Of a DNA stretch of 64,000 nucleotides, positions 32,815 through 50,713 are shown one piece after another. The notes below the pieces were generated by a model. It did no database searches, was not told where the DNA came from, and saw only the letters and a program-made list of their open reading frames with translations. How positions within the stretch are numbered: position 1 is the stretch's first letter; each line of letters begins with the position of its first letter. The position numbers and the translations under genes are program-made. Source of the DNA: Tetraselmis striata (taxonomy: Eukaryota; Chlorophyta; Chlorodendrophyceae; Chlorodendrales; Chlorodendraceae); NCBI GenBank assembly GCA_006384855.1, contig VCJN01003121.1:1-64000 (forward strand). Direction: 5' to 3'.

Positions 32815-33865
32815 CTGCATTCGCCCAACGGGGGCAGAGCGGCTGTCAGCGGCCGCCATCCTGCCGGCCCTCCTCGGCCGCAATCCAGCCCCACCCCGGC
32901 CCGCTGCCAGCGGCGCCTCCGTGTCTCTGTGCAGTGTTCGCCGACCCTCTCCAGACTCTGGATAACCCACATGCTCCCTCGCGGAAAGGAAAAATCATTA
33001 GCCTTAGCCAAGCGGGGTAATGAAGCCGTCGCAAAGGCGTTAAGGGGGGGGGGGGGGGGGGGGGGGGTCGGGGGAGAGCCCAGCGATGCCCAGCGTCCCT
33101 TTTCCACTTGCACTTCCTCCGCCGCCTTTCAAACCCCCGAACACCTGCACAAAAGGCGAAGACCGCAGCAAACACAGCAGCAGAGAGACGGTGTGGGGGG
33201 GCGGGGGGGGTGGGGGGGGGGGGGGGGGGGGGGGCTCACCCGTCGCTTCCCTTCCTCTGCTGCCGCGAATCCCCGGCGCCGTGTTTGCTGTTGGTGAGGA
33301 GGCACCGTGGGAGTGGTAGCGTCGCGTGCCTTCCCACCGGCTGCGCACGGCACGGCACGGCACCAGGATACCTGTGCAGCGGACGGCGTCATATCATCAG
33401 CGCTCCCGCAAGGGCACCTCTCGCGTCCTGTACATGTCGTACTCGTAGGGGCGACGCAACCCGACCGCGCGCCTCCGCACAAGCCCACCCTACCCCCACC
33501 GCAGCTGACCAAAAAAACCTGCCGCCATCCGAGCAAGGCCGAGCTGTGGTCCGGGGGGCTGAGGGGACGTAGCGCTGCTAGGTATTGGCAAGGCGCACCC
33601 TGTGGGGCGCTCGCCGGGGTTGTCACGACAGAGGCAGCGCCGCAATTCATCTTATTGCCGCCAATTCTTGCCCCTGCTGTAGCGGTCCAGGCGGCAATTG
33701 TCAGCCAGCGTGCGACAGCTCCTCGTCACAGTCCGAGTAGAGCCGCCTGTTCGCACGACCGGCGGGATGACTGACGCAGCAACTCCGACCGTCGCAAAGC
33801 TGTGGATTTATGTAGTCGCCCGCTGCATGGGAGAGGAGACGAGTGGCCGGGGAGGCGCTGGGCAG
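32815..33865. other. 5' region of the thioredoxin gene; G-runs
   Basis: G-runs at about 33043-33067 and 33201-33233. Minus-strand open sequence at 33650-33241 ending at GTGAGC plus a C-run, and a TTTTGTGCAG acceptor-like site near 33164, could represent thioredoxin 5' exons, but the frames could not be reconciled. The copia element is inserted immediately upstream, at 33866. Confidence 0.4.
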
Positions 33866-34378
33866 TGTTGAGTAGTAATAGATTACACTGGTCTGTTACT
33901 GATCTACTGATCTAACTGTAAGGCCACCAGCTGCAGTGTTAGGCAGACTGCACTGCCCACTGAGAGCTGCATGTGTTGCGCCGATATTTGGAAGTAGTAC
34001 TTAGGTATAGTACATAAATGGCATAATGTATTAAGGAGCTGAGAGCTCCACCAGGAGCCCAGTTCCTAGAGAGCCATCAGCAGGCATGAGGCGAACATGC
34101 CCACTCTAGAATGACCTCAGATGGTCATGCAACTCTGGGCACCACCTCAGCCAGTAGTTTAGAGACAGGAGCCGCCAGAATGGCGGCTCAACATGCTTTA
34201 TATATTAGAATACAGCAGTGCCAAGGTGCACCAGCTAGCATCCCCAGCTGAGCCCTATAGCCAGCAGGTGTAGCTGCTGATAGTACTAAGGGCTCTGTTG
34301 AGCCCTGAGAACTGTAACAGATTCTAAGCCACCCCCAGCTGCTGCTTGTCTCCAAGGCAACCTGCATCAACTTCAAAA
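33866..34378 (+). repeat. 5' LTR of the copia element
   Basis: Begins TGTTGAGTAGTAATAG and ends CAACTTCAAAA. No difference from 42214-42726 was seen on base-by-base reading. Boundaries are fixed by the GGCAG target duplication and by the adjacent primer-binding site. The terminal dinucleotides are TG...AA rather than the usual TG...CA. Confidence 0.94.
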
Positions 34379-34392
34379 GGTTATGGCTTACT
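34379..34392 (+). promoter_or_regulatory. Primer-binding site, initiator-Met half-tRNA type
   Basis: GGTTATGGC starts at the base after the LTR. GGTTATG is complementary to CATAACC of the initiator tRNA anticodon region, which is the internal priming mode known for copia-type elements. The exact extent of pairing depends on the host tRNA, which is not in the window. Confidence 0.6.
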
Positions 34393-34808
34393 CCACGCTG
34401 GTGTTGCCTTGCTGACACTCCTCTGTGGGCGCGTTGCTCTGTTCCGTGGGTGCTGCATTGGCTGCCCCCACCTGGTCTCTTGTGGGCTGCCTTTTCGGTT
34501 GCCCCTCTCGGTTTTCCGAGCGCTGGTGGCGCTCTCGTTTCCAGCACCGGTGTGCTGAGGAGGGGTGTGTCGGTCACACTCCTAGGCAGGCTTCTGTGCA
34601 GCTGCTTGTACCCCTTTGGGTGTGCGATTTTCGAGCCCTCGCTGACATCAGTGCTTTGGCACTGGGGTGTTTCTAGCTGGTTGTGTCGGAGCAAGGTGCC
34701 CAAGTCTAACAGAGAGGCGGGCGCAGTGGCACCAGGCCTCACCTTGCGGGCATATACTAGTAAGAACCCCTTAGTCTGCGTAACTCGCCAACCTTCGCCA
34801 CCTTCGTC

Positions 34809-37800
34809 ATGGCGGACGCTAACCCGCCAGCACCTGTAACCAGTGGCATCATCACTGATGGTGCTGCGCCTGGAGCAGAACACTCTGTGTCTGCTGACGC
34901 AGCCGCTGCTGTCATTGCTGCGGAGGCCCAGGCTCTTGCTGCTGCAGAGGCTCATGCGGCAACAACTGCAGCTCGCGCTGCAGCTGCTGCCCAGGCTGCG
35001 GCAGATGACCGCCAACTACGCCGTGACGCAGAACTCAGGCCCAAGCAGTTCACATACCTCCAAGTGTCAGACTGTCACGATGTCGCAGCCTTCCGCATGT
35101 TCCTCGTGCAATTCAAGCAATCCATCAAGAATGTGCAGGGCTATCGCACCATCTTTGAGCCCAGTGAAGCCGATGACACCTGCAGCGCGTATCACCACCA
35201 GCAGGTCTCCCAGCTGCTCTTGTCGCTGCTTGACAAACACCCAATCGCAGTCAATGCGATTCTGACAGCCCGTGAGGATGCTGGGCCCAATGGTCGGCAA
35301 GCTTACCACTGTTTGGAAGCTCTGCGTCTCGAGTTCATCCCGAGTCATGAAGGTGAAGCCCTCGAGCGGCGTCGTGACCTGGATGAGAAGCAGCGCTCAA
35401 CCGAGTCGGTGCGTGACTACGCTCGCCGTCTGGAGCAATGCCGCAGTGCGCTCTTGGATGCAGGTGGTCACATCACAGATCGTGAAATGTTGACTCTCTT
35501 CAAACATGGCATGAATCCCGAGATGGAGATGTACCGCGTTGCACTGCGCATGGACACCTCACTCACCACTTTTGCTCGCTACAAAGCTGCGCTCTTCCAA
35601 TCACTCCCAAGTCCCAGCACGGACCCGACTGGAGCCTTCACCGCAGTGTCTGGTCGGGCATCCGCACCCCCACTGGCAACCGTTTCATCACCGCCAACCG
35701 CTCCATCCGGTGACATTGCCGCCCTGATGGCGAAGATGGAGCAGATGCAAACTCAGATCCAAGCTCAGTCACAAGAACTCACCCGACTCCGGGGCCGCCA
35801 CACCGGTCCTAGTGGCCCTCGCATCTCTCGTCCGTTCACTGGCAAGTGTTGGACCTGCGGGCGTCCGGGGCACCGTGAATCAGAATGTCGTGCCAAGACC
35901 CATGTTGCAGTGGACGCTGTTCCCGCACCTACCGCAGCTACTCACGACTTTGGCGCATTGTCATTTAGCTTCCTTGCAGATGACGCGAGTCTCCCACCCG
36001 CTGCGACCCCACTGCCCCCAATGCCGCCGCAAGCCTGGTCGGTTGACAGCTCCGGTGTCAAATTGGTGCGCAGCTCCCCAGTGTCCCTGCCGCAGAGCCC
36101 GTTTGGCACTCTCACCTTTGTCGACGAGAGCCAACCGCTCATAATCTCTGCACCAGTCCGCTCACCCACACCCGAGCCTATCTGTGCGGGCTCAAGCCCT
36201 CCTGTGGCACGCCGCTTGTCAGAGCGTGCCAAGGGCAAAGGTCCGGCGCCCATGCCTGATGCGCGCAGTCCCAGCGCGCATGGAGGGGATGCAGGCATGT
36301 GGCAGTGGGTGCCAACCAAGACTCGTCATGGCATCGGCGCAACAAGCGCGGTAACTACTCCGTTGACAACGACCACAGTCAACCCGTACCAAACATTGGC
36401 AGGAGGGCGTGGCCTTGGTGGCCCTGACGAAGAGCCTCTCCTTGTGCGGCAGCGTGAGACACTCGCGCGAGCGCATGCCCTCGCAGTGAAAGAACGGGCC
36501 ACACAAGCCACGATGGAGGAAGTGGCTGCAACACCTGTCATGGAAATCAAGGAGCTGGTTTCGGAGCCAGCAATCCTCAGCTCCTCGGAACGCCGTGACG
36601 AGGAGCTCAAATGGCTACATCAGTACGTGTACGCATGTTACCTCAAGCGTGTACCAGCTGCATCGCCGCACCTAACAGCCCTACCGCCGAGTGGCTGTCG
36701 CACCAAGCGCCAGATGTGTCAGGCTTTCAGCCGCATGCGGGGCAGACACCAGCCCCTGCCGAAAACGGCTGCTCAACCGGACAAGACCCATATGGCTCGC
36801 CAGTCCGACGCAGAACAGATTGAGAGCTTAGCTGCAGTTGCGGCTGTGGAAGCGTTTCAGAGCACACCTCAGGACTACGACTTCTATGGGTCTCACCTGC
36901 TCGCGAGACAGCCGAGGGGCAGTTCGATGCGCTCGACATCCGCCATGAACATCCCGCGCCCGGCGCGGTATTCACTGTCGACGCACCCCAGACGGCTGCG
37001 CAGCACTCCAGGCCTAGGCAACCTGATGCATGTCAGCAATACCTACACTACCCAGACAGACAGTCATGGAGACATGCCTGACCTCGAATCCAACTCTGAC
37101 ATGTCAGATGACTCTGCTGAGGATGAGCATGAGCGCACTGCCCACACCGCGCACACCGAGGGAGACATGCCGTCTCTCGCTCTTGACTCCACCAATGACA
37201 ACAGTGATCCGGACTACGATGATGATTCTCCTGGAGGTGCTTACTTGAGGCGTGCGCTAACGGCGCTCGCAGAATTACACCACGATGAAGCTCGTCACCA
37301 TGACAATGGGCTGATTGACCGCGATGCCAAGCGACGTTGGCGACGCCGCACACAGCGTCAACGCCGCCGAGCTCGCCGCCGCGCGCAGCAATGGTGCACC
37401 CACACTGACGCTACAGACCAACTGTCAGCATGGGCTGCGTGCCAACAGCAAGAGCGTGACATCCAGGACAGCATTGCCCCTCTCACAGAGATTCAACACC
37501 TGAAACCCGATAGCACAGCCTTCAGCAAGTCACGGCCTATTCACTACGTTGGCCTCTGCAGCGGAGCAACTTTCGCCATCCTTGGAGAGCTGTGCTCATT
37601 AGGGCATCGGTTCAGTATGGTGACACTGGTAGAGAGCGACCGTGCAATCGCAGCAGCGGCTCAGTCGGAGCTACATACCCTGCAAAGCAAATGGTCTCAC
37701 AGCTTGCCACGTGCGGCCGTGGACAATGCGTTTGATCGCCTCCCATCACAAGATGTGAACCAACTCTCGGCTGAGGACTTCCAATCTCTGCCACCTGTCG

Positions 37801-40799
37801 ACCTGGTGGTCAGCTCCCCACCGTGTCAACCGTTCTCTGCTGCGGGGCTCGGTCTAGGCCTACGAGACGACCGAGCACAGGCATTCTATGCGACGACCAG
37901 ACTCATTTATGGGATCCAGCGCCAACAGCCGCGTGGTCTAAACTATGTGGTTGAAAATGTCACTGGCGCGGCTCGGTCACCACAGATCCGCGCAGCCCTT
38001 GGGCAGCCCATGCTCGCACGAGCGCACGAACTGGGCTCCACTGCCCGACGTGACACCCTATTCTGGACCAACATTCACAGCCTTGCTGACCTGCGACGAC
38101 ACTATCAGCGATGTGTGAGACCACCAGTGACAGTGGATGACATGCTTACCCGTGGCAACTTCTCGCCTGCATGGGCGGCTCCCCCGCATTTGAAAGACAG
38201 CGTCCTTCCAAAACTCCTGTCTCGCAAGGGAACCTGGGCATACAGAATGCACGGCCCAACCCCGGGCCGCGGCATGCTGCTCCTCGATGGAGTCTGGACG
38301 GAACCTGACTGCGACATCCGCTGTGAAAGCATGGGCTTCGATCAGTCCACGCTCAACCTTCCTGGCATATCTGAGGACCTACGACGTCGTGCACTTGGAG
38401 CGTGTATTGATGCCAACGTTGCTCGCTGGTTGGCTCTCGCTATCTCTGTGACATCCTGGAAGGATGAAACAGCCTTGCCCAGCATCCACACCTTTCCTGA
38501 CCAGTGGGTGTTCGACACCGGCGCCACGTCCCATATGGCCGCTTGCTTCGCAGACTACGCCAGCGCCGGTGATTATCGAACTATAACCCGACGATGGATC
38601 AGTGGGCTTGGCGCGTACGCAGTGGGTGTGGGCACAGTCCACCTTACCATGCAGACTGAGGATGGACGCTCTGTGTCTTCCATGGTCCGCAACTGCTTGC
38701 ACGTCCCCGACCTGGCATCGAAATCAAATGGACGCGTACTTCGGCTGTTCAGTGCGCGGGCCGCTCAGATAGCCAATCCAGATTTCAAAGTGCTGATGAC
38801 AGCTCAGCGCAATGCCATGCAGCTATCCGATGCTGTATCTGTCCCCATTGAGATCAATGGTCAGCTCTTTGTGCTGAACACAGCAATCACTACCGCTCAG
38901 TCATCGCTGTCCGCCGACACATCTAGCTCCACAGGCCTGCTAGCCGTGCGCTTGTCGAAGGAACATATCAAGATGCTGTGGCACGCTCGTCTCGGTCATC
39001 TCCATGAGCGTGCAATGGATGCCGCCCTGGCAGACCACGACGTCCCCCGCTATGGTCACCTCCAGCACATCAGCTTACCGTTCTGTGAGGCATGTGCACT
39101 GGTCAAGTCGACCATTGCACCGATGCCGCGCCGATGCCACGACAAACCCACTGTGCCCTTCTCACTGGTGGGCTGGGACTTCTGGGAAACCAGGACTCCA
39201 TCTTTGCAAGGCAATACATACTGCTGTGGCGCCTTCGACTACGCCTCGTCCATGGCATGTCTGTACTTTGTGCGCTCTCGCTCTGCGGCAGTTACTTGTC
39301 TCCGCGCCTTCAACACAATGGTCGTCAACCTCGGATTCACTGTACAAGCCCTGCGACTTGACAATGACACCGCGTTCCGGAGCGCATCATATATTGCCGC
39401 CTGCGACGACCTACAAGTGCGTCGCACATATGCAGCCCCGTACAGCCAGTTCCAGAATGGCCTCTCTGAACGCTCGTGGCGCACTCTCAGTACCTGGACG
39501 CGCTGCATGCTTACCCATGCCGCTCTCGCGGACTCGTACTGGGAGTTTGGTATGATGGTCGCCGTCCATATCCACAACCGCACCATGCGGCGAGGCGTCG
39601 CGGATATCCCACTGCGGAAAATCACCGGCGCCGTGCCCGACCTGTCCTACCTGCGAGTGTTCGGATGTCCAGCCTATGTCCACACCCCCCGAGAAAATCG
39701 GCGCAAACTCGCTCACTCAGCCCGCAAGGGCATCTTCGTTGGCTACTCGCCCGACTCCCCAGCGTGGCTAGTCTACATGCCTGACACACGCACCGTCATC
39801 GCCAGCCGGTCTGTCGCCTTCGATGAAACGCCCCATGGTCCCGCCGTGGCGACTGATGTGCCAGATGAGTGGCCTGCTGCCACTCAGGAGGGGTTGAGAC
39901 CACCATCAGGCTCAGGAGGGGCGTCCACCTCTGGAGGGGCGTCCACCTCAGGAGGGGCGTCCACCTCAGGAGGGGCATCCACCTCAGGAGGGGCGTCCAT
40001 CTCAGGAAGGGCATCCTCCTCTGGAAAAACCCCGAACCCCCGCTGCCCCACATGCGCAGCACCGCAGCCCATCGACCCGCTACCTCTTGCCTGGGGCTCT
40101 ACCCGGAGCTGCAACCGTATCCACAGTGACAGCGACAGCGACAGCGGCAGCGACGACAGCAACCACAGTGATACTCCTGACAGCACCTTACCCCCGGCTC
40201 CCAGTTCCTCAGAGCCTACAGCGCCTCGCGAGCCAACACCTCCGCCTCCGAGCAGAGAAATCACTCCTCCCCCTCCTATGCCACGAGCTCAGCCCCCGAT
40301 TATCACCCCACTGCCCTCGACACCAGTCATTCGCGCACCAATCGTCCCCAATCAGCCACTACAATCCGGCACTGTACCTGCGACCGCACCGTCTTCATCA
40401 ACCGCGCCAACGCCAGCTGCAGCAACGCGTACCCGACAGGGCACCCGAGGAGTGCGCAACAGACACCGCAGAGTGTACAACCCAGATGATGGTTCGTGGC
40501 AGACTCAGTCCTATGCAGCAGCGGTGATGACTGGCGAGTGCCCCGTACAGGATGAGCTGTCATTCCTGTGCTTCACCCGCAACATTGACCCAGCCGACTG
40601 GGCACTCGTGGCAGGCGAGGCGCCTGGTGACCCTATCACATTTGAGGAGGCGATTAATGGCCCCAAGGCACCACAATGGATGGAGTCCATGAGACATGAA
40701 TACACGTCACTGGTTAGCCGTGGTACGTGGAAGTTGGTACCCAAGCCTGGAGGTGGTCGCAGAGTCGTTAAATCCAAGTGGGTGTACAAAACCAAATAA
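34809..40799 (+). CDS. Gag-DNA methyltransferase-protease-integrase polyprotein
   Basis: 1996 codons from ATG 34809. Residues 1-60 are Ala-rich. About 70-260 form a copia-type Gag helical domain. A CCHC knuckle (CWTCGRPGHRESEC) spans 347-360. About 361-840 is a Pro/Ser-rich, then acidic spacer. 841-865 is strongly Arg-rich. About 908-1215 is a cytosine-C5 methyltransferase (separate entry). Protease DTG follows with D1236 (WVFDTGATSHM). Integrase has an HHCC site (HARLGHLHERAM; C1426 and C1429) and catalytic D1457, D1518 and E1554, the last pair spaced exactly D-35-E. After the core is an SGGAST repeat, then Pro/Ser-rich linker, then the start of RT. The frame ends at TAA 40797 just after KSKWVYKTK, a conserved RT entry motif, so the stop is internal to pol. 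The methyltransferase is in frame with both neighbours, so it would be made as part of the polyprotein and presumably released by the protease. Confidence 0.95.
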   Translation: MADANPPAPVTSGIITDGAAPGAEHSVSADAAAAVIAAEAQALAAAEAHAATTAARAAAAAQAAADDRQLRRDAELRPKQFTYLQVSDCHDVAAFRMFLVQFKQSIKNVQGYRTIFEPSEADDTCSAYHHQQVSQLLLSLLDKHPIAVNAILTAREDAGPNGRQAYHCLEALRLEFIPSHEGEALERRRDLDEKQRSTESVRDYARRLEQCRSALLDAGGHITDREMLTLFKHGMNPEMEMYRVALRMDTSLTTFARYKAALFQSLPSPSTDPTGAFTAVSGRASAPPLATVSSPPTAPSGDIAALMAKMEQMQTQIQAQSQELTRLRGRHTGPSGPRISRPFTGKCWTCGRPGHRESECRAKTHVAVDAVPAPTAATHDFGALSFSFLADDASLPPAATPLPPMPPQAWSVDSSGVKLVRSSPVSLPQSPFGTLTFVDESQPLIISAPVRSPTPEPICAGSSPPVARRLSERAKGKGPAPMPDARSPSAHGGDAGMWQWVPTKTRHGIGATSAVTTPLTTTTVNPYQTLAGGRGLGGPDEEPLLVRQRETLARAHALAVKERATQATMEEVAATPVMEIKELVSEPAILSSSERRDEELKWLHQYVYACYLKRVPAASPHLTALPPSGCRTKRQMCQAFSRMRGRHQPLPKTAAQPDKTHMARQSDAEQIESLAAVAAVEAFQSTPQDYDFYGSHLLARQPRGSSMRSTSAMNIPRPARYSLSTHPRRLRSTPGLGNLMHVSNTYTTQTDSHGDMPDLESNSDMSDDSAEDEHERTAHTAHTEGDMPSLALDSTNDNSDPDYDDDSPGGAYLRRALTALAELHHDEARHHDNGLIDRDAKRRWRRRTQRQRRRARRRAQQWCTHTDATDQLSAWAACQQQERDIQDSIAPLTEIQHLKPDSTAFSKSRPIHYVGLCSGATFAILGELCSLGHRFSMVTLVESDRAIAAAAQSELHTLQSKWSHSLPRAAVDNAFDRLPSQDVNQLSAEDFQSLPPVDLVVSSPPCQPFSAAGLGLGLRDDRAQAFYATTRLIYGIQRQQPRGLNYVVENVTGAARSPQIRAALGQPMLARAHELGSTARRDTLFWTNIHSLADLRRHYQRCVRPPVTVDDMLTRGNFSPAWAAPPHLKDSVLPKLLSRKGTWAYRMHGPTPGRGMLLLDGVWTEPDCDIRCESMGFDQSTLNLPGISEDLRRRALGACIDANVARWLALAISVTSWKDETALPSIHTFPDQWVFDTGATSHMAACFADYASAGDYRTITRRWISGLGAYAVGVGTVHLTMQTEDGRSVSSMVRNCLHVPDLASKSNGRVLRLFSARAAQIANPDFKVLMTAQRNAMQLSDAVSVPIEINGQLFVLNTAITTAQSSLSADTSSSTGLLAVRLSKEHIKMLWHARLGHLHERAMDAALADHDVPRYGHLQHISLPFCEACALVKSTIAPMPRRCHDKPTVPFSLVGWDFWETRTPSLQGNTYCCGAFDYASSMACLYFVRSRSAAVTCLRAFNTMVVNLGFTVQALRLDNDTAFRSASYIAACDDLQVRRTYAAPYSQFQNGLSERSWRTLSTWTRCMLTHAALADSYWEFGMMVAVHIHNRTMRRGVADIPLRKITGAVPDLSYLRVFGCPAYVHTPRENRRKLAHSARKGIFVGYSPDSPAWLVYMPDTRTVIASRSVAFDETPHGPAVATDVPDEWPAATQEGLRPPSGSGGASTSGGASTSGGASTSGGASTSGGASISGRASSSGKTPNPRCPTCAAPQPIDPLPLAWGSTRSCNRIHSDSDSDSGSDDSNHSDTPDSTLPPAPSSSEPTAPREPTPPPPSREITPPPPMPRAQPPIITPLPSTPVIRAPIVPNQPLQSGTVPATAPSSSTAPTPAAATRTRQGTRGVRNRHRRVYNPDDGSWQTQSYAAAVMTGECPVQDELSFLCFTRNIDPADWALVAGEAPGDPITFEEAINGPKAPQWMESMRHEYTSLVSRGTWKLVPKPGGGRRVVKSKWVYKTK
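37530..38450 (+). other. Cytosine-C5 DNA methyltransferase domain within gag-pol
   Basis: Transfers methyl from S-adenosylmethionine to cytosine C5. Motifs in canonical order: I, VGLCSGATFAILGEL (residues from 914), the SAM-binding loop, less glycine-rich than the textbook FxGxG; II, LVESD; IV, SSPPCQPFSAAG with catalytic C1006; VI, VENV with E1049 and N1050; VIII-like, ARRDTLFWTN; a variable target-recognition region about 1090-1170; IX/X, CESMGFDQ then RRRALGACIDANVARWL. The order of I to X is unpermuted, unlike plant DRM. The FW-N and GF...LG pattern recalls the DNMT3/DRM branch, whereas PCQ is the general C5-methylase form. All key catalytic residues are present and there is no stop or frame change across it. 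It contains no visible chromatin-reader domain. Precedent: methyltransferases carried by retrotransposons have been reported in dinoflagellates and a charophyte alga. Confidence 0.92.
39911..40026 (+). repeat. 18-bp in-frame tandem repeat (SGGAST) in pol
   Basis: Six or so units of an 18-bp sequence containing GGAGGGGCGTCCACCTC, encoding Ser-Gly-Gly-Ala-Ser-Thr, with later units degraded. Lies in the linker between the integrase core and RT. The period is a multiple of three, so unit-number changes keep the frame. Confidence 0.9.
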
Positions 40800-42219
40800 A
40801 CACAATGCAGATGGGACTGTGTCAAAGGAGAAAGCCAGGCTCTGCGCCAAAGGCTTCACCCAAGTGCAAGGCCTCGACTTCACGGAAACCTTCGCACCGA
40901 CAGTGAAGTTCACCACCCTCCGAGTCATCTTCTCCATTGCTGCTCACCTTGACCTGCACATGGAACAAACTGATGTCGACTGCGCCTTCCTCTATGCCAG
41001 CCTGGATGAGGAAATCTACATGGAGCAACCAAAGGGCTTTGTTGAATATGGCCCTGATGGGAGCCCCCTCGTCTGCCGCCTCCTCAAAGCCGTCTATGGA
41101 TTGAAGCAAGCGCCACACAATTGGCACCGTGTTCTTCAGGACTTCATGACCACCATGAACTGCCGACAGCTACGAACAGATCCTGGTGCTTATGTCTACC
41201 GCAGCAGTGACTCAGCAATCCTGGCAATCATCGCCATCTACGTCGACGACATCCTGATCGCCAGCAACTCTATGACCTGGATCGCATCATTCAAGGAGTC
41301 CATGGCAGCCCGATTTGACATCAAGGACCTCGGCAGCTGCTCATGGCTATTGGGAGTCAAGGTTGAGCGAGACCGAACAGCACGCACCATCACCATTCAT
41401 CAGTCAAAGTACATCCATGACCTGCTCGCTCGATTTGGAATGGAGCAGTGCTGTGCAGCCAAGGTTCCCAGTGTGGCCAACGACCCCCGCGAATCCGAGC
41501 AGTGCACCGAAACTGAGGTCAGCACCTATCGCAGCCTTGTGGGAGCTCTTCTCTACGCCGCAGTCGCCACTCGGCCAGATATTGCTGAGTCAGTCGCCCG
41601 ACTGTGCCGATTCATGTCTACCCCAACCAAGGCACACATGGAGGACGCACGACACTGTCTGAGGTACCTCAAGGGGACACACAGCCGTGGAATCACCTTT
41701 GGTGGAGACGACAAGCTGGCACTACATGGATACAGTGACGCCAACTTCCCGACGACCTACCCCAGTCAATGCAAGTCTACTACTGGCTACGTTTTCTTCC
41801 TTTGCGGAGGAGCAATCAGCTTTCTGTCGAAATTACAGGCACTGGTGGCCCTGTCCACAGCAGAGGCAGAGTACATCGCTCTCTGCATGACAGTGCAAGA
41901 GGCAGTGTTCCTGCGCCAAATGTTAGAAGAACTGGGCTTCCAACAAACAGCACCCACTCCCGTCGGTGAGGACAACCAGGCGTGCATAGTCATCGCCACC
42001 ACGGATGTGACATCAGCGCGCACCAAGCATTTGGACATCCGACTTCACTTTGTGCGGGACGCCCATCAAGCAGGTGCCGTGCACATCCACTATGTGCCCA
42101 CTCATGAGATGCTTGCAGACATGTTTACCAAAGCACTGCCACGACTTCAATTCGAGGCACTCAGGGCTGAAGTCATGAATGACATGCAAGCTGCAGCAAC
42201 CAGTGAGGAGGGGTGTTGA
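40798..42219 (+). CDS. Reverse transcriptase-RNase H part of pol, +1 frame
   Basis: This open segment continues pol in the next frame after the internal TAA. RT motifs run from NADGTVSKEKARLCAKGFTQ through QTDVDCAFLYA, YGLKQAPHNWH and the catalytic IYVDDILIAS (Asp pair at 41245-41250). RNase H follows with YSDAN, KSTTGYVFFLCGG and STAEAEYIAL, and the KHLDIRLHFVRD segment. It ends at TGA 42217-42219 inside the 3' LTR. The first ATG in this frame (40696) lies upstream of the natural junction and its leader is not RT-like, so separate initiation is unlikely. Expression would need a +1 shift at AAA-TAA-A or a repaired sister copy. All catalytic residues are intact. Confidence 0.92.
   Translation, partial: KHNADGTVSKEKARLCAKGFTQVQGLDFTETFAPTVKFTTLRVIFSIAAHLDLHMEQTDVDCAFLYASLDEEIYMEQPKGFVEYGPDGSPLVCRLLKAVYGLKQAPHNWHRVLQDFMTTMNCRQLRTDPGAYVYRSSDSAILAIIAIYVDDILIASNSMTWIASFKESMAARFDIKDLGSCSWLLGVKVERDRTARTITIHQSKYIHDLLARFGMEQCCAAKVPSVANDPRESEQCTETEVSTYRSLVGALLYAAVATRPDIAESVARLCRFMSTPTKAHMEDARHCLRYLKGTHSRGITFGGDDKLALHGYSDANFPTTYPSQCKSTTGYVFFLCGGAISFLSKLQALVALSTAEAEYIALCMTVQEAVFLRQMLEELGFQQTAPTPVGEDNQACIVIATTDVTSARTKHLDIRLHFVRDAHQAGAVHIHYVPTHEMLADMFTKALPRLQFEALRAEVMNDMQAAATSEEGC
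42205..42213 (+). promoter_or_regulatory. Polypurine tract
   Basis: GAGGAGGGG, all purine, abuts the 3' LTR and also encodes the penultimate residues of pol. Expected to prime plus-strand DNA synthesis. Confidence 0.75.
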
Positions 42220-42726
42220 GTAGTAATAGATTACACTGGTCTGTTACTGATCTACTGATCTAACTGTAAGGCCACCAGCTGCAGTGTTAGGCAGACTGCA
42301 CTGCCCACTGAGAGCTGCATGTGTTGCGCCGATATTTGGAAGTAGTACTTAGGTATAGTACATAAATGGCATAATGTATTAAGGAGCTGAGAGCTCCACC
42401 AGGAGCCCAGTTCCTAGAGAGCCATCAGCAGGCATGAGGCGAACATGCCCACTCTAGAATGACCTCAGATGGTCATGCAACTCTGGGCACCACCTCAGCC
42501 AGTAGTTTAGAGACAGGAGCCGCCAGAATGGCGGCTCAACATGCTTTATATATTAGAATACAGCAGTGCCAAGGTGCACCAGCTAGCATCCCCAGCTGAG
42601 CCCTATAGCCAGCAGGTGTAGCTGCTGATAGTACTAAGGGCTCTGTTGAGCCCTGAGAACTGTAACAGATTCTAAGCCACCCCCAGCTGCTGCTTGTCTC
42701 CAAGGCAACCTGCATCAACTTCAAAA
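42214..42726 (+). repeat. 3' LTR of the copia element
   Basis: Identical by eye to 33866-34378. The pol stop codon (42217-42219) lies six bases into it. Confidence 0.94.
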
Positions 42727-42949
42727 GGCAGTTAATCCTTAGGCGTTGGGCGCGTTCGAGGGCTCGAGGCCTCGCGTGCTCATCATCCGGGCGGGTAGGT
42801 CGCTACTGCCCAAGTTATCGTTGGCATTCGTCAGTGAAACTCCTACCATGTAGAAATCACATGGATTCTTCCGGATTACCCGACTGTAGGAAATAACGGT
42901 CGCCGCGCGCCCGTTATCATTCGTAGGTCGGTGATGTCATTTTCCCCCG

Positions 42950-47049: not shown

Positions 47050-48530
47050 ATGCCGGCAAAGGGATGGATAGCGAGTGTGTCGAAGGATGGCGTGTACACA
47101 TGCAAGCACTGCCACGGCATCGTGACGGGTAGTAGTGAAAGGACGGCGCGAGAGCGGCACTTCCGGAAATACCCGAACTGTAGCCACTCGCTGAAGCGTG
47201 CGGCTAAGTTGCGCCGCAAGGCCGCCTTATCACAACCAGCAGCAGCAGGGGCGGCAGCAGCAGCAGCAGCAGCAGCAGCAACAAGCGCGGCAGCAGGAGT
47301 AGCTGCAGCCGTCGGAAACGGCCCGCCGGCGCCGGTCTCGGACGACGGCGGCTCGAAGGTGGACGATGTGATGGGCGTGGGGGAGGACCCCGTTGGCGAA
47401 GACGGTATGGACATCGACGCGCCTGCGTGGCCGCCGGCGGGCGTCGAACCCGCGATGAGGGCGTGATATGGAAAGGCGATCCCGGCGACTTCTACATGAA
47501 GGTCATCGCCAAGAAGTTCCGGGGAGTATGGCACTACGGCGTGATAACCGGCGTCGTTACCGAGTGGGTGTTGGAGGACTACGGCGGGGCGACCCAGTGG
47601 CGCGCTGTTTTCGAGGACGGTGACATTGTGGACCTTCTGCGTTCAGAGGTGAGTGGGCCCGGCCTGTGTGCTGGTGGCACCACTCACCTGCGGTTGTATG
47701 GAATCACACGCACCCACCCGGTCGGCGTGGCAGGTTGTGGAGGCTATGGCGGCTGCCCAGGAGCACCCCACTGTGGATGCGGACGGGGAGGCTCGCTTGG
47801 TAACCGTCCATCAAGGCGATGACTTGTCCAGTGAATCACGCACCTTGCCCGGCGTGCGTTCAACACAACCCGGCTGGCGGAGGCCAAGCAGAACACTGGC
47901 TGCCATGGCGTGTGCCATGTGCATGTGGTCCTGGGCTATGTCAACATGATCAACCTCTTCCCCCTCGCGCCGTTCCACCTGTTTTTTTTTGGCTTGGGAA
48001 GGGACTTCTGGAGGAAATTTGTCACCGTGCAGGGCCACATTGGATTCCGAGCTATGAAGCAGGAAGACCGGCGCCAGGCTTTAGTCCCGATACCCAGCAA
48101 CTTTGAACGCGGGTTGCGCCCTTCGTTTGCAGTGTCCAAGAATCGAAAGGTAACCCCCCCCCCCCCCCCCCCCCGGGCGTGGGCGTGGGCGTGGGCGTGG
48201 GCGTGACGGCATTCCCCTCCATGACTGCAGGGTCAGGCAAGGTGACGGTGCAGTCCGGCTGGGTCATGGAGGACTGCTTGCACCACATGGAAACGTTTTC
48301 CATTCTTAACGCCGGTCCGCTGCTCGAGGAGGCCCGGGTGAAGGCGATCATGACCGAGAAGGAGCTTCGCGTCCCTAGGCGGTGCTTGGGCACATGTACA
48401 AGCGCATGCAAGGAGCTGCGTGGTTCGTCACGCGGTGGGGGTTGCAGAATGTGGTGACGGAGGAGGACGGCCCCGAGCGCAAGGCGCAGGTGGACGCGCT
48501 CACTAGGGAGGGGAGGACTCGATACCCCGC
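47050..48530 (+). CDS. Unidentified zinc-finger / Tudor-like multi-exon gene, probably mobile-element derived
   Basis: The ATG at 47050 opens a 138-codon segment with YTCKHCHGIV ... RERHFRKYPNCSH, a BED-like zinc finger, then poly-Ala and an acidic tail. A frame change near 47461 leads to DFYMKVIAKKFRGVWHYGVI ... WRAVFEDGDIVDLL, which looks like a Tudor/Agenet-type barrel. The donor GAG|GTGAGT (47648) and acceptor GGCAG| (47733) give a clean intron into VVEAMAAAQEHP. Later open sequence (47910-48149) includes PFHLFFFGLGRDFWRKF and PIPSNFERGLRPSFAVSKNRK, ending at donor GTAA followed by a C-run. A plausible next exon reads SGWVMEDCLHHMETFS, then HMYKRMQGAAWFVTRWG. The latter runs straight into the minisatellite. 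I do not recognise the family. Zinc-finger plus chromatin-reader-like composition and the surrounding repeats suggest a transposon-encoded protein, possibly broken at 47461. Confidence 0.45.
48152..48173. repeat. Poly-C run at an intron donor
   Basis: About 22 C residues directly after AAG|GTAA. Followed by GGGCGT units. Confidence 0.9.
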
Positions 48531-49767
48531 GCGGCGCCAAGGCGCGGCGGCCGGGGCAGCGCGGCGCCAAGACAGCGGCGGCCGGGGCAGCGCGGCGCCA
48601 AGGCGCGGCGGCCGGGGCAGCGCGGCGCCAAGGCGCGGCGGCCGGGGCAGCGCGGCGCCAAGGCGCGGCGGCCGGGGCAGCGCGGCGCCAAGACAGCGGC
48701 GGCCGGGGGAGCGCGGCGCCAAGGCGCGGCGGCCGGGGCAGCGCGGCGCCAAGGCGCGGCGGCCGGGGCAGCGCGGCGCCAAGGCGCGGCGGCCGGGGCA
48801 GCGCGGCGCCAAGGCGCGGCGGCCGGGGCAGCGCGGCGCCAAGGCGCGGCGGCCGGGGCAGCGCGGCGCCAAGGCGCGGCGGCCGGGGCAGCGCGGCGCC
48901 AAGGCGCGGCGGCCGGGGCAGCGCGGCGCCAAGGCGCGGCGGCCGGGGCAGCGCGGCGCCAAGACAGCGGCGGCCGGGGCAGCGCGGCGCCAAGACAGCG
49001 GCGGCCGGGGCAGCGCGGCGCCAAGACAGCGGCGGCCGGGGCAGCGCGGCGCCAAGGCGCGGCGGCCGGGGCAGCGCGGCGCCAAGACAGCGGCGGCCGG
49101 GGCAGCGCGGCGCCAAGACAGCGGCGGCCGGGGCAGCGCGGCGCCAAGACAGCGGCGGCCGGGGCAGCGCGGCGCCAAGGCGCGGCGGCCGGGGCAGCGC
49201 GGCGCCAAGGCGCGGCGGCCGGGGCAGCGCGGCGCCAAGGCGCGGCGGCCGGGGCAGCGCGGCGCCAAGGCGCGGCGGCCGGGGCAGCGCGGCGCCAAGG
49301 CGCGGCGGCCGGGGCAGCGCGGCGCCAAGGCGCGGCGGCCGGGGCAGCGCGGCGCCAAGGCGCGGCGGCCGGGGCAGCGCGGCGCCAAGGCGCGGCGGCC
49401 GGGGCAGCGCGGCGCCAAGACAGCGGCGGCCGGGGCAGCGCGGCGCCAAGACAGCGGCGGCCGGGGCAGCGCGGCGCCAAGGCGCGGCGGCCGGGGCAGC
49501 GCGGCGCCAAGACAGCGGCGGCCGGGGCAGCGCGGCGCCAAGACAGCGGCGGCCGGGGCAGCGCGGCGCCAAGACAGCGGCGGCCGGGGCAGCGCGGCGC
49601 CAAGACAGCGGCGGCCGGGGCAGCGCGGCGCCAAGACAGCGGCGGCCGGGGCAGCGCGGCGCCAAGACAGCGGCGGCCGGGGCAGCGCGGCGCCAAGACA
49701 GCGGCGGCCGGGGCAGCGCGGCGCCAAGACAGCGGCGGCCGGGGCAGCGCGGCGCCAAGACAGCGCA
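48530..49767 (+). repeat. GC minisatellite, ~41 units of 30/31 bp
   Basis: Tandem units beginning GCGCGGCGCC exist in two forms. Type A (30 bp) continues AAGGCGCGG; type B (31 bp) continues AAGACAGCGG; both end CGGCCGGGGCA. Reading left to right the order is A B A3 B A8 B3 A B3 A8 B2 A B9 followed by a partial B. One B unit has GGGGGA in place of GGGGCA (~48708). No stop codon occurs in several frames of either strand, producing spurious ORFs of more than 400 codons on both strands. It begins inside an open frame of the preceding gene. Confidence 0.95.
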
Positions 49768-50713
49768 TACAGCGGAATCGGCGGAAAGGGATGCATTACA
49801 AGCTGTGGACGGCAGCCGCTGAAAACTATGCGGTCATGCCGCAACAACCCCAGCACTGGCTTCTGGATACCTCTGATCTGGCTGACGGCGGCGGGCTGCG
49901 GGATGCAGGGCCGCATGACTGAGGTGGCGGTGCTGGTGAGCCCGCAGAGTCTGCATGCGGCGGAGGCGGCGCAGCCGCATAGGCACTAGACAATGCTCTG
50001 AAGCGAGCCCCAATTGTCTGCCCAGCGCCTGCCCCAATGTAACGCACCAACTTGGCAGCAATTGGCAGCTCTTTTGCCCCCCCCCTCCACCCCACAGACA
50101 CACTACCAATACCAGTTTCTCATCCCGGCGGGCAGTTGATGCGTATACCCAGGCTTGTGCGTACGCGGTGCGGGGGGGGGGGGGGGGGGGGGGGGGGGGA
50201 TCACTATAGCTAAGCTAGTGATGTGAGATATGAGTGCAGCAACAGATATTGTGCAAGATATTATACGATGGCATGCAAGCGGGTCCCCGCTCTTCCACAA
50301 TCATTGGCCCTGCTCCCTCTTGCCCCGCCCCCGGTGCCCTTTAGCTGCTCTCAGCATCCCGAGTGGGATGGGCGGGGCAGCGGTTGCTACCGAGTGAGGC
50401 GTAGCATCGTTTGCAGTAGCAACGCAGCCTTTCCGGTGTGACGCCGCCTGGATGTAACCCAGCAGTACGCGCAAAGTGCAAGTGCAAGCTGCTGATGGCG
50501 GGGATCCCGCGCGGGGGGGGGGGGGGGGGGGGGCAGCGGCTGTGGGATAGGCGCGGCAGCGGTTGCTACAGAGTGAGGCGTCGCATTGTTTGCAGTAGCA
50601 ACGCAGCCTTTCCGGTTGCATAGTGTGACGCAGCCTGGATGTAACCCAGCAGTACGCGCAAAGTGCAAGTTTTACACGTCCGTGTGCCCCACCCAATGAC
50701 ATTGCGCCCGACC
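49768..50713. other. Minisatellite 3' flank and a G-run-bearing duplication
   Basis: One frame after the minisatellite (MHYKLWTAAAENYAVMPQQP, 49791-49915) looks coding and may be the C-terminus of the interrupted gene. G-runs at about 50173-50199 and 50513-50533. Bases 50365-50490 recur at about 50540-50668 (shared GCAGCGGTTGCTAC and TGGATGTAACCCAGCAGTAC), a ~178-bp tandem duplication with a G-run between copies. Confidence 0.6.

What the first reader, a model, noticed from the sequence alone, without database searches (positions are those of the whole stretch)
33866..42726. A young Ty1/copia retrotransposon encodes its own cytosine DNA methyltransferase
Seen: intact LTR pair, target duplication, Gag knuckle, protease, D-60-D-35-E integrase, YVDD reverse transcriptase and RNase H, with an uninterrupted C5-methyltransferase (catalytic C1006 in SPPCQPF, VENV, terminal GF...ALG) in the same frame between Gag and protease. 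Known: I recall reports of retrotransposon-borne methyltransferases in dinoflagellates and a charophyte alga; the host here looks chlorophyte. Inference: the element may methylate its own copies (mimicking silencing, protecting cDNA, or escaping mutation-biased removal) or alter host methylation. The domain has no chromatin reader and sits after an Arg-rich stretch, so specificity may come from association with the element's own nucleic acid.
Basis: partly seen in the sequence, partly recalled or inferred. Interest (0 to 1): 0.96.

Follow-up and report, generated by a model that had tools for sequence, protein, structure and literature searches.

The report
Copia retrotransposons carrying DNMT3-like DNA methyltransferase
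A recently inserted jumping gene in a green alga carries its own DNA-methylating enzyme, and many related elements in the same genome have kept that enzyme in working order, which suggests that it helps them to spread.

Summary
Window 33866-42726 is a young Ty1/copia element: identical 513-bp LTRs, GGCAG target duplication, order Gag, C5-methyltransferase, protease, integrase, RT. This copy is not intact: its first frame stops at 40797-40799, before most of RT. A 99.8% identical sister at another site has an open frame of 2,483 codons.

The methyltransferase (37533-38510) is real: Pfam E 1.1e-8; an AlphaFold2 model (pLDDT 84.8) matches DNMT3 catalytic domains end to end (all 50 listed Foldseek hits). 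It is not a one-off. Related domains lie at 120 or more loci, 43 of 120 in uninterrupted frames of at least 1,500 codons. I read five Copia families, each with the domain between Gag and protease, and one LINE that also carries a PCIF1-like domain. Retained copies show purifying selection (median dN/dS about 0.2; internal branches 0.24-0.26, terminal 0.53-0.57).

Best mechanism, inferred: the domain is packaged with Gag-Pol and methylates the element's own cDNA. Activity, specificity and benefit are untested, and CpG content gives no support. DNMT-bearing retrotransposons are published for dinoflagellates and a charophyte; Copia families in a chlorophyte, and a related LINE, were not found in my searches. 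New variant of a known kind.

The parts
33861..33865 (.). left target-site duplication GGCAG
33866..34378 (+). 5' LTR, 513 bp, TGTTGAG...CTTCAAAA; CpG 5 observed, 31.4 expected
34379..34396 (+). candidate primer binding site GGTTATGG..., perhaps complementary to a half initiator tRNA-Met (inference; the tRNA gene was not found)
   Evidence: sequence; no tRNA in the window
34809..40799 (+). ORF A, 1,996 aa: Gag, spacer, methyltransferase, protease, integrase, spacer, start of RT
35847..35888 (+). CCHC zinc knuckle (CWTCGRPGHRESEC)
37293..37382 (+). Arg-rich stretch, aa 829-858, 15 R/K of 30
37533..38510 (+). DNMT3-like C5-methyltransferase domain, 326 aa; catalytic Cys1006 codon at 37824-37826; VENV; RRDTLFWTN; terminal MGF...ALGACID
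38514..38525 (+). protease active-site motif DTGA, directly after the methyltransferase
38979..39848 (+). integrase, zinc-binding region and DD35E core (rve, SH3_retrovirus)
40696..42219 (+). ORF B, 507 aa in another frame: RT (RVT_2, YVDD) and RNase H region
40797..40799 (+). stop codon that ends ORF A: the frame break of this copy
   Evidence: sister frame open for 2,483 codons
42203..42213 (+). candidate polypurine tract GTGAGGAGGGG
   Evidence: sequence; role inferred
42214..42726 (+). 3' LTR, identical to the 5' LTR
42727..42731 (.). right target-site duplication GGCAG

Best explanation
The element is a member of an old, diverse group of Copia LTR retrotransposons in a chlorophyte alga whose single Gag-Pol frame includes a DNMT3-like cytosine-C5 methyltransferase between the Gag zinc knuckle and the protease. 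Shown by computation: the domain, its place, its catalytic motifs, its DNMT3-like fold, its presence in many families and its conservation under purifying selection. Inferred: because it is made as part of Gag-Pol it is packaged in the particle with RNA, RT and integrase, and it methylates the element's own double-stranded cDNA (or the newly inserted copy), which helps that cDNA persist or be tolerated by the host. Which benefit applies (protection from nucleases or deaminases, passing as host DNA, or restraint that keeps the host alive) is open. My odds: identity and selection about 0.95; cDNA or provirus as the main substrate about 0.5.
For: Domain: Pfam E 1.1e-8; all 10 members of an alignment of six families match PF00145. 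Fold: model with pLDDT 84.8 and pTM 0.85; the 50 listed of 173 Foldseek matches at E<=0.001 are all DNMT3A/3B/3C entries, some with DNMT3L, best E 1.4e-14, target TM up to 0.80 over about 310-320 columns. Place: in five Copia families read (window, L039, L040, L100, L098) it lies between knuckle and protease. Spread: 120 distinct loci, 43 of 120 in uninterrupted frames of >=1,500 codons. Selection: family B 74 of 105 pairs with dS>0.02, median dN/dS 0.20; family C 78 of 91, median 0.21; N/S per site on internal branches 0.243 (B) and 0.255 (C), terminal 0.531 and 0.572. Window against family B: domain 53% identical, between Gag (28%) or the spacer (34%) and protease (60%) or integrase (66%). 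Congruent methyltransferase and pol trees. Published: two SymbioDIRS-Dnmt3 domains methylate CG de novo in yeast.
Against: No activity, packaging, expression or methylation data here. CpG o/e of methyltransferase-bearing Copia is 0.80-0.96, and of a methyltransferase-free Copia 0.83, so no domain-specific CpG loss. Copia family O has no such domain and is at least as abundant among the best RT hits, so it is not needed for success. The best PDB match by sequence is HaeIII, not DNMT3A, and the tree places the group near DNMT3A only weakly (0.784-0.880). Selection was measured on retained copies: 11 of 43 fetched regions were dropped as broken or incomplete. In the published yeast test SymbioLINE and KnitGypsy domains showed no activity.
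Confidence: 0.55

Rival explanations
1. The domain acts mainly in trans on host chromatin or on other copies, so that it alters host methylation or silencing of competitors.
For: DNMT3-like catalytic fold; many copies; in Symbiodinium a link between such elements and a hypermethylated genome was proposed.
Against: No nuclear localisation or chromatin reader detected by Pfam; no methylome at hand; the Klebsormidium methylome was reported as ordinary.
Confidence: 0.15
2. The substrate is RNA: genomic RNA or the tRNA primer is methylated in the particle.
For: Profile matches include DNMT2, a tRNA methyltransferase; it adjoins the RNA-binding Gag end; RNA as substrate was proposed for SymbioLINE.
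Against: The end-to-end fold matches listed are DNMT3, not DNMT2; the listing shows 50 of 173, so lower ranks were not seen.
Confidence: 0.15
3. The domain has become a non-catalytic nucleic-acid binder or structural extension of Gag.
For: The residue after the catalytic Cys varies (PPCQ, PPCA in L098, PCCE in L100).
Against: The catalytic Cys and ENV are invariant across the ten aligned members; PPCQP[FW]S in 41 of 41 regions that gave a frame (of 43 fetched) and ENV in 37 of 41.
Confidence: 0.08
4. A passenger: captured once and not yet lost.
For: Many older copies are degraded throughout.
Against: Retention across families only about 30-50% identical and purifying selection on internal branches.
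Confidence: 0.05

Closest known systems
KnitGypsy-Dnmt3 (Klebsormidium nitens; PMC5890265)
   Same: LTR retrotransposon of a green-lineage alga with a Dnmt3-related domain in the Pol polyprotein, under purifying selection (Ka/Ks < 0.2 reported)
   Different: Gypsy domain order with DIRS-like repeats, charophyte host; here Copia order with ordinary LTRs, domain between Gag and protease, chlorophyte host
SymbioDIRS-Dnmt3 (Symbiodinium; PMC5890265)
   Same: Dnmt3-type domain inside a retrotransposon Pol frame, many copies; activity on CG shown in yeast
   Different: DIRS class with tyrosine recombinase; dinoflagellate host; no activity data here
SymbioLINE-Dnmt (PMC5890265)
   Same: LINE carrying a C5-methyltransferase, comparable to the L041 LINE here
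   Different: There in ORF1 upstream of the RT ORF and of an orphan type; here in one frame between RT and RNase H, together with a PCIF1-like domain
Ordinary Ty1/copia elements
   Same: LTRs, Gag knuckle, protease, integrase before RT (RVT_2)
   Different: No methyltransferase, as in family O (L099) of the same genome
DIRS elements with Dam-like adenine methylase (mentioned in PMC5890265)
   Same: A retrotransposon with a DNA methyltransferase
   Different: Unrelated N6-adenine enzyme and element class

Membership tests
Ty1/copia LTR retrotransposon | LTR pair with short target duplication | tested here: met
   513-bp identical LTRs, GGCAG duplication; sister with ATGTA at its ends
Ty1/copia LTR retrotransposon | protease-integrase-RT order and copia-type RT (RVT_2) | tested here: met
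   rve and SH3_retrovirus before RVT_2; same in B, C, E, F (rve itself not listed for E)
Ty1/copia LTR retrotransposon | primer site for a (half) initiator tRNA | tested here: inconclusive
   GGTTATGG... after the LTR; no tRNA in the window; match to tRNA-iMet is recalled, not computed
C5-cytosine methyltransferase (PF00145) | family profile above cut-off | tested here: met
   35.3 bits against 22; family F member L098 is below it, 18.5 bits
C5-cytosine methyltransferase (PF00145) | catalytic PC and ENV motifs | tested here: met
   C98, E141, N142, V143 invariant in ten members
DNMT3 clade | catalytic-domain fold of DNMT3 rather than of another type | tested here: met
   all 50 listed of 173 Foldseek hits are DNMT3 entries; the first, poorer model agreed
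DNMT3 clade | monophyly with DNMT3 in a sequence tree | tested here: inconclusive
   near DNMT3A and HaeIII with support 0.784-0.880, from partial reference pieces; best PDB profile hit is HaeIII
DNMT-bearing retrotransposons (de Mendoza 2018) | methyltransferase inside a retrotransposon coding frame | tested here: met
DNMT-bearing retrotransposons (de Mendoza 2018) | purifying selection on the domain | tested here: met
   on retained copies only; RT of the same copies was not measured
DNMT-bearing retrotransposons (de Mendoza 2018) | methylates DNA | not testable with these tools
   needs an enzyme assay or a methylome
KnitGypsy-Dnmt3 | Gypsy domain composition | tested here: not met
   integrase lies before RT and RT is RVT_2

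The most novel reading that the evidence does not exclude
One methyltransferase module has long been shared among retrotransposons of different classes in this alga: it was fixed early in a Copia clade, diversified with it, and passed between Copia and a LINE that has added a second, PCIF1-like (N6-adenosine type) methyltransferase-related domain. Self-methylation would then be a standing strategy of these elements and not a chance capture.
Probability: 0.35. Interest if true: 0.8.

Novelty: new variant of a known kind. Interest (0 to 1): 0.62.

Why it matters
Cytosine methylation normally silences retrotransposons, so elements that keep a methyltransferase under selection are a paradox. This genome offers a natural comparison: five Copia families with the domain, one abundant Copia family without it and a LINE with a related one, all in one nucleus. 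Native-read methylation calls across these families could test directly whether elements methylate themselves. The finding also adds a retrotransposon superfamily and a green-algal lineage to a pattern reported for dinoflagellates and one charophyte.

Tried and rejected
Rejected: (1) fully intact element: the pol frame is broken at 40797. (2) Allelic or assembly duplicate of the C2193 copy: flanks and target duplications differ. (3) Chance motif: significant profile and structure matches. (4) Specificity from the Arg-rich stretch as a shared feature: absent next to the domain in C and E. (5) CpG depletion as proof of self-methylation: not specific to domain-bearing families. (6) Recent capture from a phage or virus: no match in 50,697 phage records; only distant relatives in viral contigs (12 loci; 1; none) and in prokaryote genomes (3 loci). 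Giant-virus and phage enzymes do match by structure, so an old viral source is not excluded. (7) A pseudoknot or special fold at the frame break: RNA fold no better than shuffles (z +1.44), so no sign of programmed frameshifting there.

Led nowhere: 18S search for host identity unanswered three times; pdb_via library absent; bootstrap trees with IQ-TREE timed out and were replaced by FastTree; the LTR of family O and the upstream part of the LINE could not be fetched, so CpG loss in LTRs of domain-free Copia and the LINE's endonuclease remain unchecked. RT dN/dS of the same copies was not computed for the same reason.

Counts and rows dropped: one search used the 120 distinct loci; adding 92 of the 123 rows (31 dropped as another methyltransferase family, host-like exons or terminal pieces) gives 151 loci; most were not read individually. 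In one search, of 43 fetched loci 32 plus the window were kept; L055, L058, L070, L074, L075, L076, L078-L082 were dropped as broken, short or without a PPC[QE] frame, which favours intact copies.

Full report
Anatomy. The window element spans 33866-42726. Its LTRs are identical over 513 bp, and GGCAG flanks both ends. The near-identical copy on contig C2193 (99.76% over 6,133 columns and 99.79% over 4,229) has other flanks, ATGTA at its ends and one difference in 512 between its own LTRs. So these are two recent, separate insertions. ORF A (1,996 aa) carries the knuckle, methyltransferase, protease and DD35E integrase; ORF B (507 aa), in another frame, carries RT and the RNase H region. ORF A stops at 40797, while the C2193 frame is open for 2,483 codons. 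The window copy therefore has a broken pol frame. The RNA around the break folds no better than shuffles.

The domain. Pfam finds DNA_methylase in ORF A at E 1.1e-8, over motifs IV to VI. The rest is recognisable by alignment of six families: 32 invariant columns include the catalytic Cys, ENV, the Arg of the R(R/K)xxxxW.N motif and the terminal MG...LG...N (motif names are recalled). A first model was poor (pLDDT 63.8). With all six families in the alignment it reached 84.8, pTM 0.85. Foldseek against the PDB gave 173 matches at E<=0.001; the 50 listed are DNMT3A, 3B or 3C entries, some in complex with DNMT3L, with target TM 0.73-0.80 for most isolated catalytic domains and rmsd about 4 A. 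By sequence the best PDB match is HaeIII (1.4e-10), then DNMT3A (1.5e-8) and DNMT2 (6.4e-8). A small FastTree groups all six retrotransposon domains (0.806), next to DNMT3A plus HaeIII (0.784), on partial reference pieces. I call it DNMT3-like; strict membership of the DNMT3 clade is not proven.

Not a one-off. A family search of the host genome (224 Mb, 2,903 contigs) gave 123 rows. A search with the LINE version gave 150 rows at 120 distinct loci, 43 of 120 in uninterrupted frames of at least 1,500 codons, the window copy included. I read one element in full or nearly so for each of five Copia families: A (window), B (L039, LTRs 98.7% alike), C (L040, 99.6%), E (L100, 98.5%) and F (L098, LTRs not fetched). 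In each the domain lies between the Gag knuckle and the protease. A sixth, L041, is a LINE with RVT_1, a PCIF1_WW domain (E 7.3e-15), the methyltransferase and RNase H in one frame; the PCIF1 match is confirmed against solved PCIF1 (E 2.2e-6). Family O (L099) is a Copia without the domain and dominates the 150 best RT hits by frame length (1,561 codons).

History. Identities of the domain are A-B 53%, A-F 45%, A-C 33%, A-E 33%, A-D (LINE) 33%. Pol gives ((A,B),F), then O, then (C,E), with supports 0.996-0.999. The domain gives ((A,B),F) against C and E once the LINE is set aside, so the trees agree for the five Copia families. The LINE joins C (0.695) or C+E (0.409): its source is unsettled. 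O lies between the two domain-bearing groups in an unrooted tree, so either O lost the domain or there were two gains, or the root lies on O. I could not decide.

Selection. On 32 retained regions plus the window (11 of 43 fetched loci dropped), pairwise dN/dS has medians 0.20 (family B, 74 of 105 pairs with dS>0.02, maximum 0.86) and 0.21 (family C, 78 of 91, maximum 0.68); pairs are not independent. Parsimony counts on trees give N 30, S 41 on internal and N 48, S 30 on terminal branches for B, and N 33, S 43 against N 62, S 36 for C, that is per-site ratios 0.243 and 0.255 internal, 0.531 and 0.572 terminal. This is the pattern of a domain that active lineages must keep and dead copies lose. 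Window against B, the domain (53%) is far better kept than Gag (28%) or the spacer (34% of aligned positions) and below protease (60%), integrase (66%) and RT (71%). RT dN/dS of the same copies was not measured.

Methylation footprints. CpG o/e is 0.80-0.96 in domain-bearing Copia (A internal 0.80, B 0.81, C 0.92, E 0.96, F 0.86), 0.83 in domain-free O, 0.80 in the LINE and 0.95-1.03 in the window's flanks. Nothing here is specific to the domain. The LTRs of A and B are strongly CpG-poor (0.16 and 0.31), those of C and E are not (0.84 and 0.80). That could be a promoter kept free of its own enzyme's target, or old decay; the LTR of O could not be fetched.

Host. A rubisco large subunit on contig C1177 matches 1gk8 best (966 bits), which I recall as Chlamydomonas; the fit with a chlorophyte is good, but the species is not known.

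Mechanism. Being inside Gag-Pol, the enzyme should be packaged with RNA and RT, where double-stranded cDNA forms (inference from Copia biology). DNMT3-type enzymes methylate unmethylated DNA de novo, and two SymbioDIRS-Dnmt3 domains did so in yeast, while SymbioLINE and KnitGypsy domains did not. So I favour methylation of the element's own cDNA or new insertion. The benefit is open.

Prior work. I read parts 1-4 of 7 of PMC5890265 and passages of it. It reports DNMTs in dinoflagellate LINE and DIRS elements and a charophyte Gypsy element, and says Symbiodinium Copia lack them. PMC12344493 (section 5 read) says in passing that some DNMT3s sit in 'LTR Copia and DIRS' elements 'as previously reported' in 2018; the 2018 paper calls the LTR element Gypsy, so this may be a slip, but it tempers any claim of a first Copia. 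PMC8226300 and PMC9998398 were seen as passages only: no mention of 'methyltransferase' in the first, nothing on Copia-borne methyltransferases in the passages of the second. Searches listed no report of a chlorophyte Copia with a methyltransferase, nor of a LINE with PCIF1 and DNMT domains; subscription papers and preprints are not in that library.

Noticed in passing
L041 (contig C2687), RVT_1, PCIF1_WW, DNA_methylase and RNase_H in one frame: A LINE carries both a PCIF1-like (N6-adenosine methyltransferase type) domain and a C5-methyltransferase related to the Copia one; four loci.
   Followed up: partly
L001-L006, L008, L103, L107: Another repeated methyltransferase of about 325 aa with PPCV, beside an ORF that may be a viral-type DNA polymerase start (recalled motif): perhaps a Polinton-like element.
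   Followed up: no
window 33866-34378; L039:543-1020: LTRs of families A and B have very few CpGs (5 against 31.4 expected; 7 against 22.9), unlike those of C and E.
   Followed up: partly
L106 (contig C2009): A 630-aa C5-methyltransferase frame that looks bacterial or prophage-like; possible contaminant contig.
   Followed up: no
contigs C440, C805, C1776, C1435, C1230: Methyltransferase-free Copia (1,561-codon frame) occurs in dense clusters on single contigs, as a centromere-type array might.
   Followed up: no
window 48000-50000: Stretch of 78% GC coding for a repeated RRPGQRGAKA-like peptide in overlapping frames on both strands; probably a tandem repeat.
   Followed up: no
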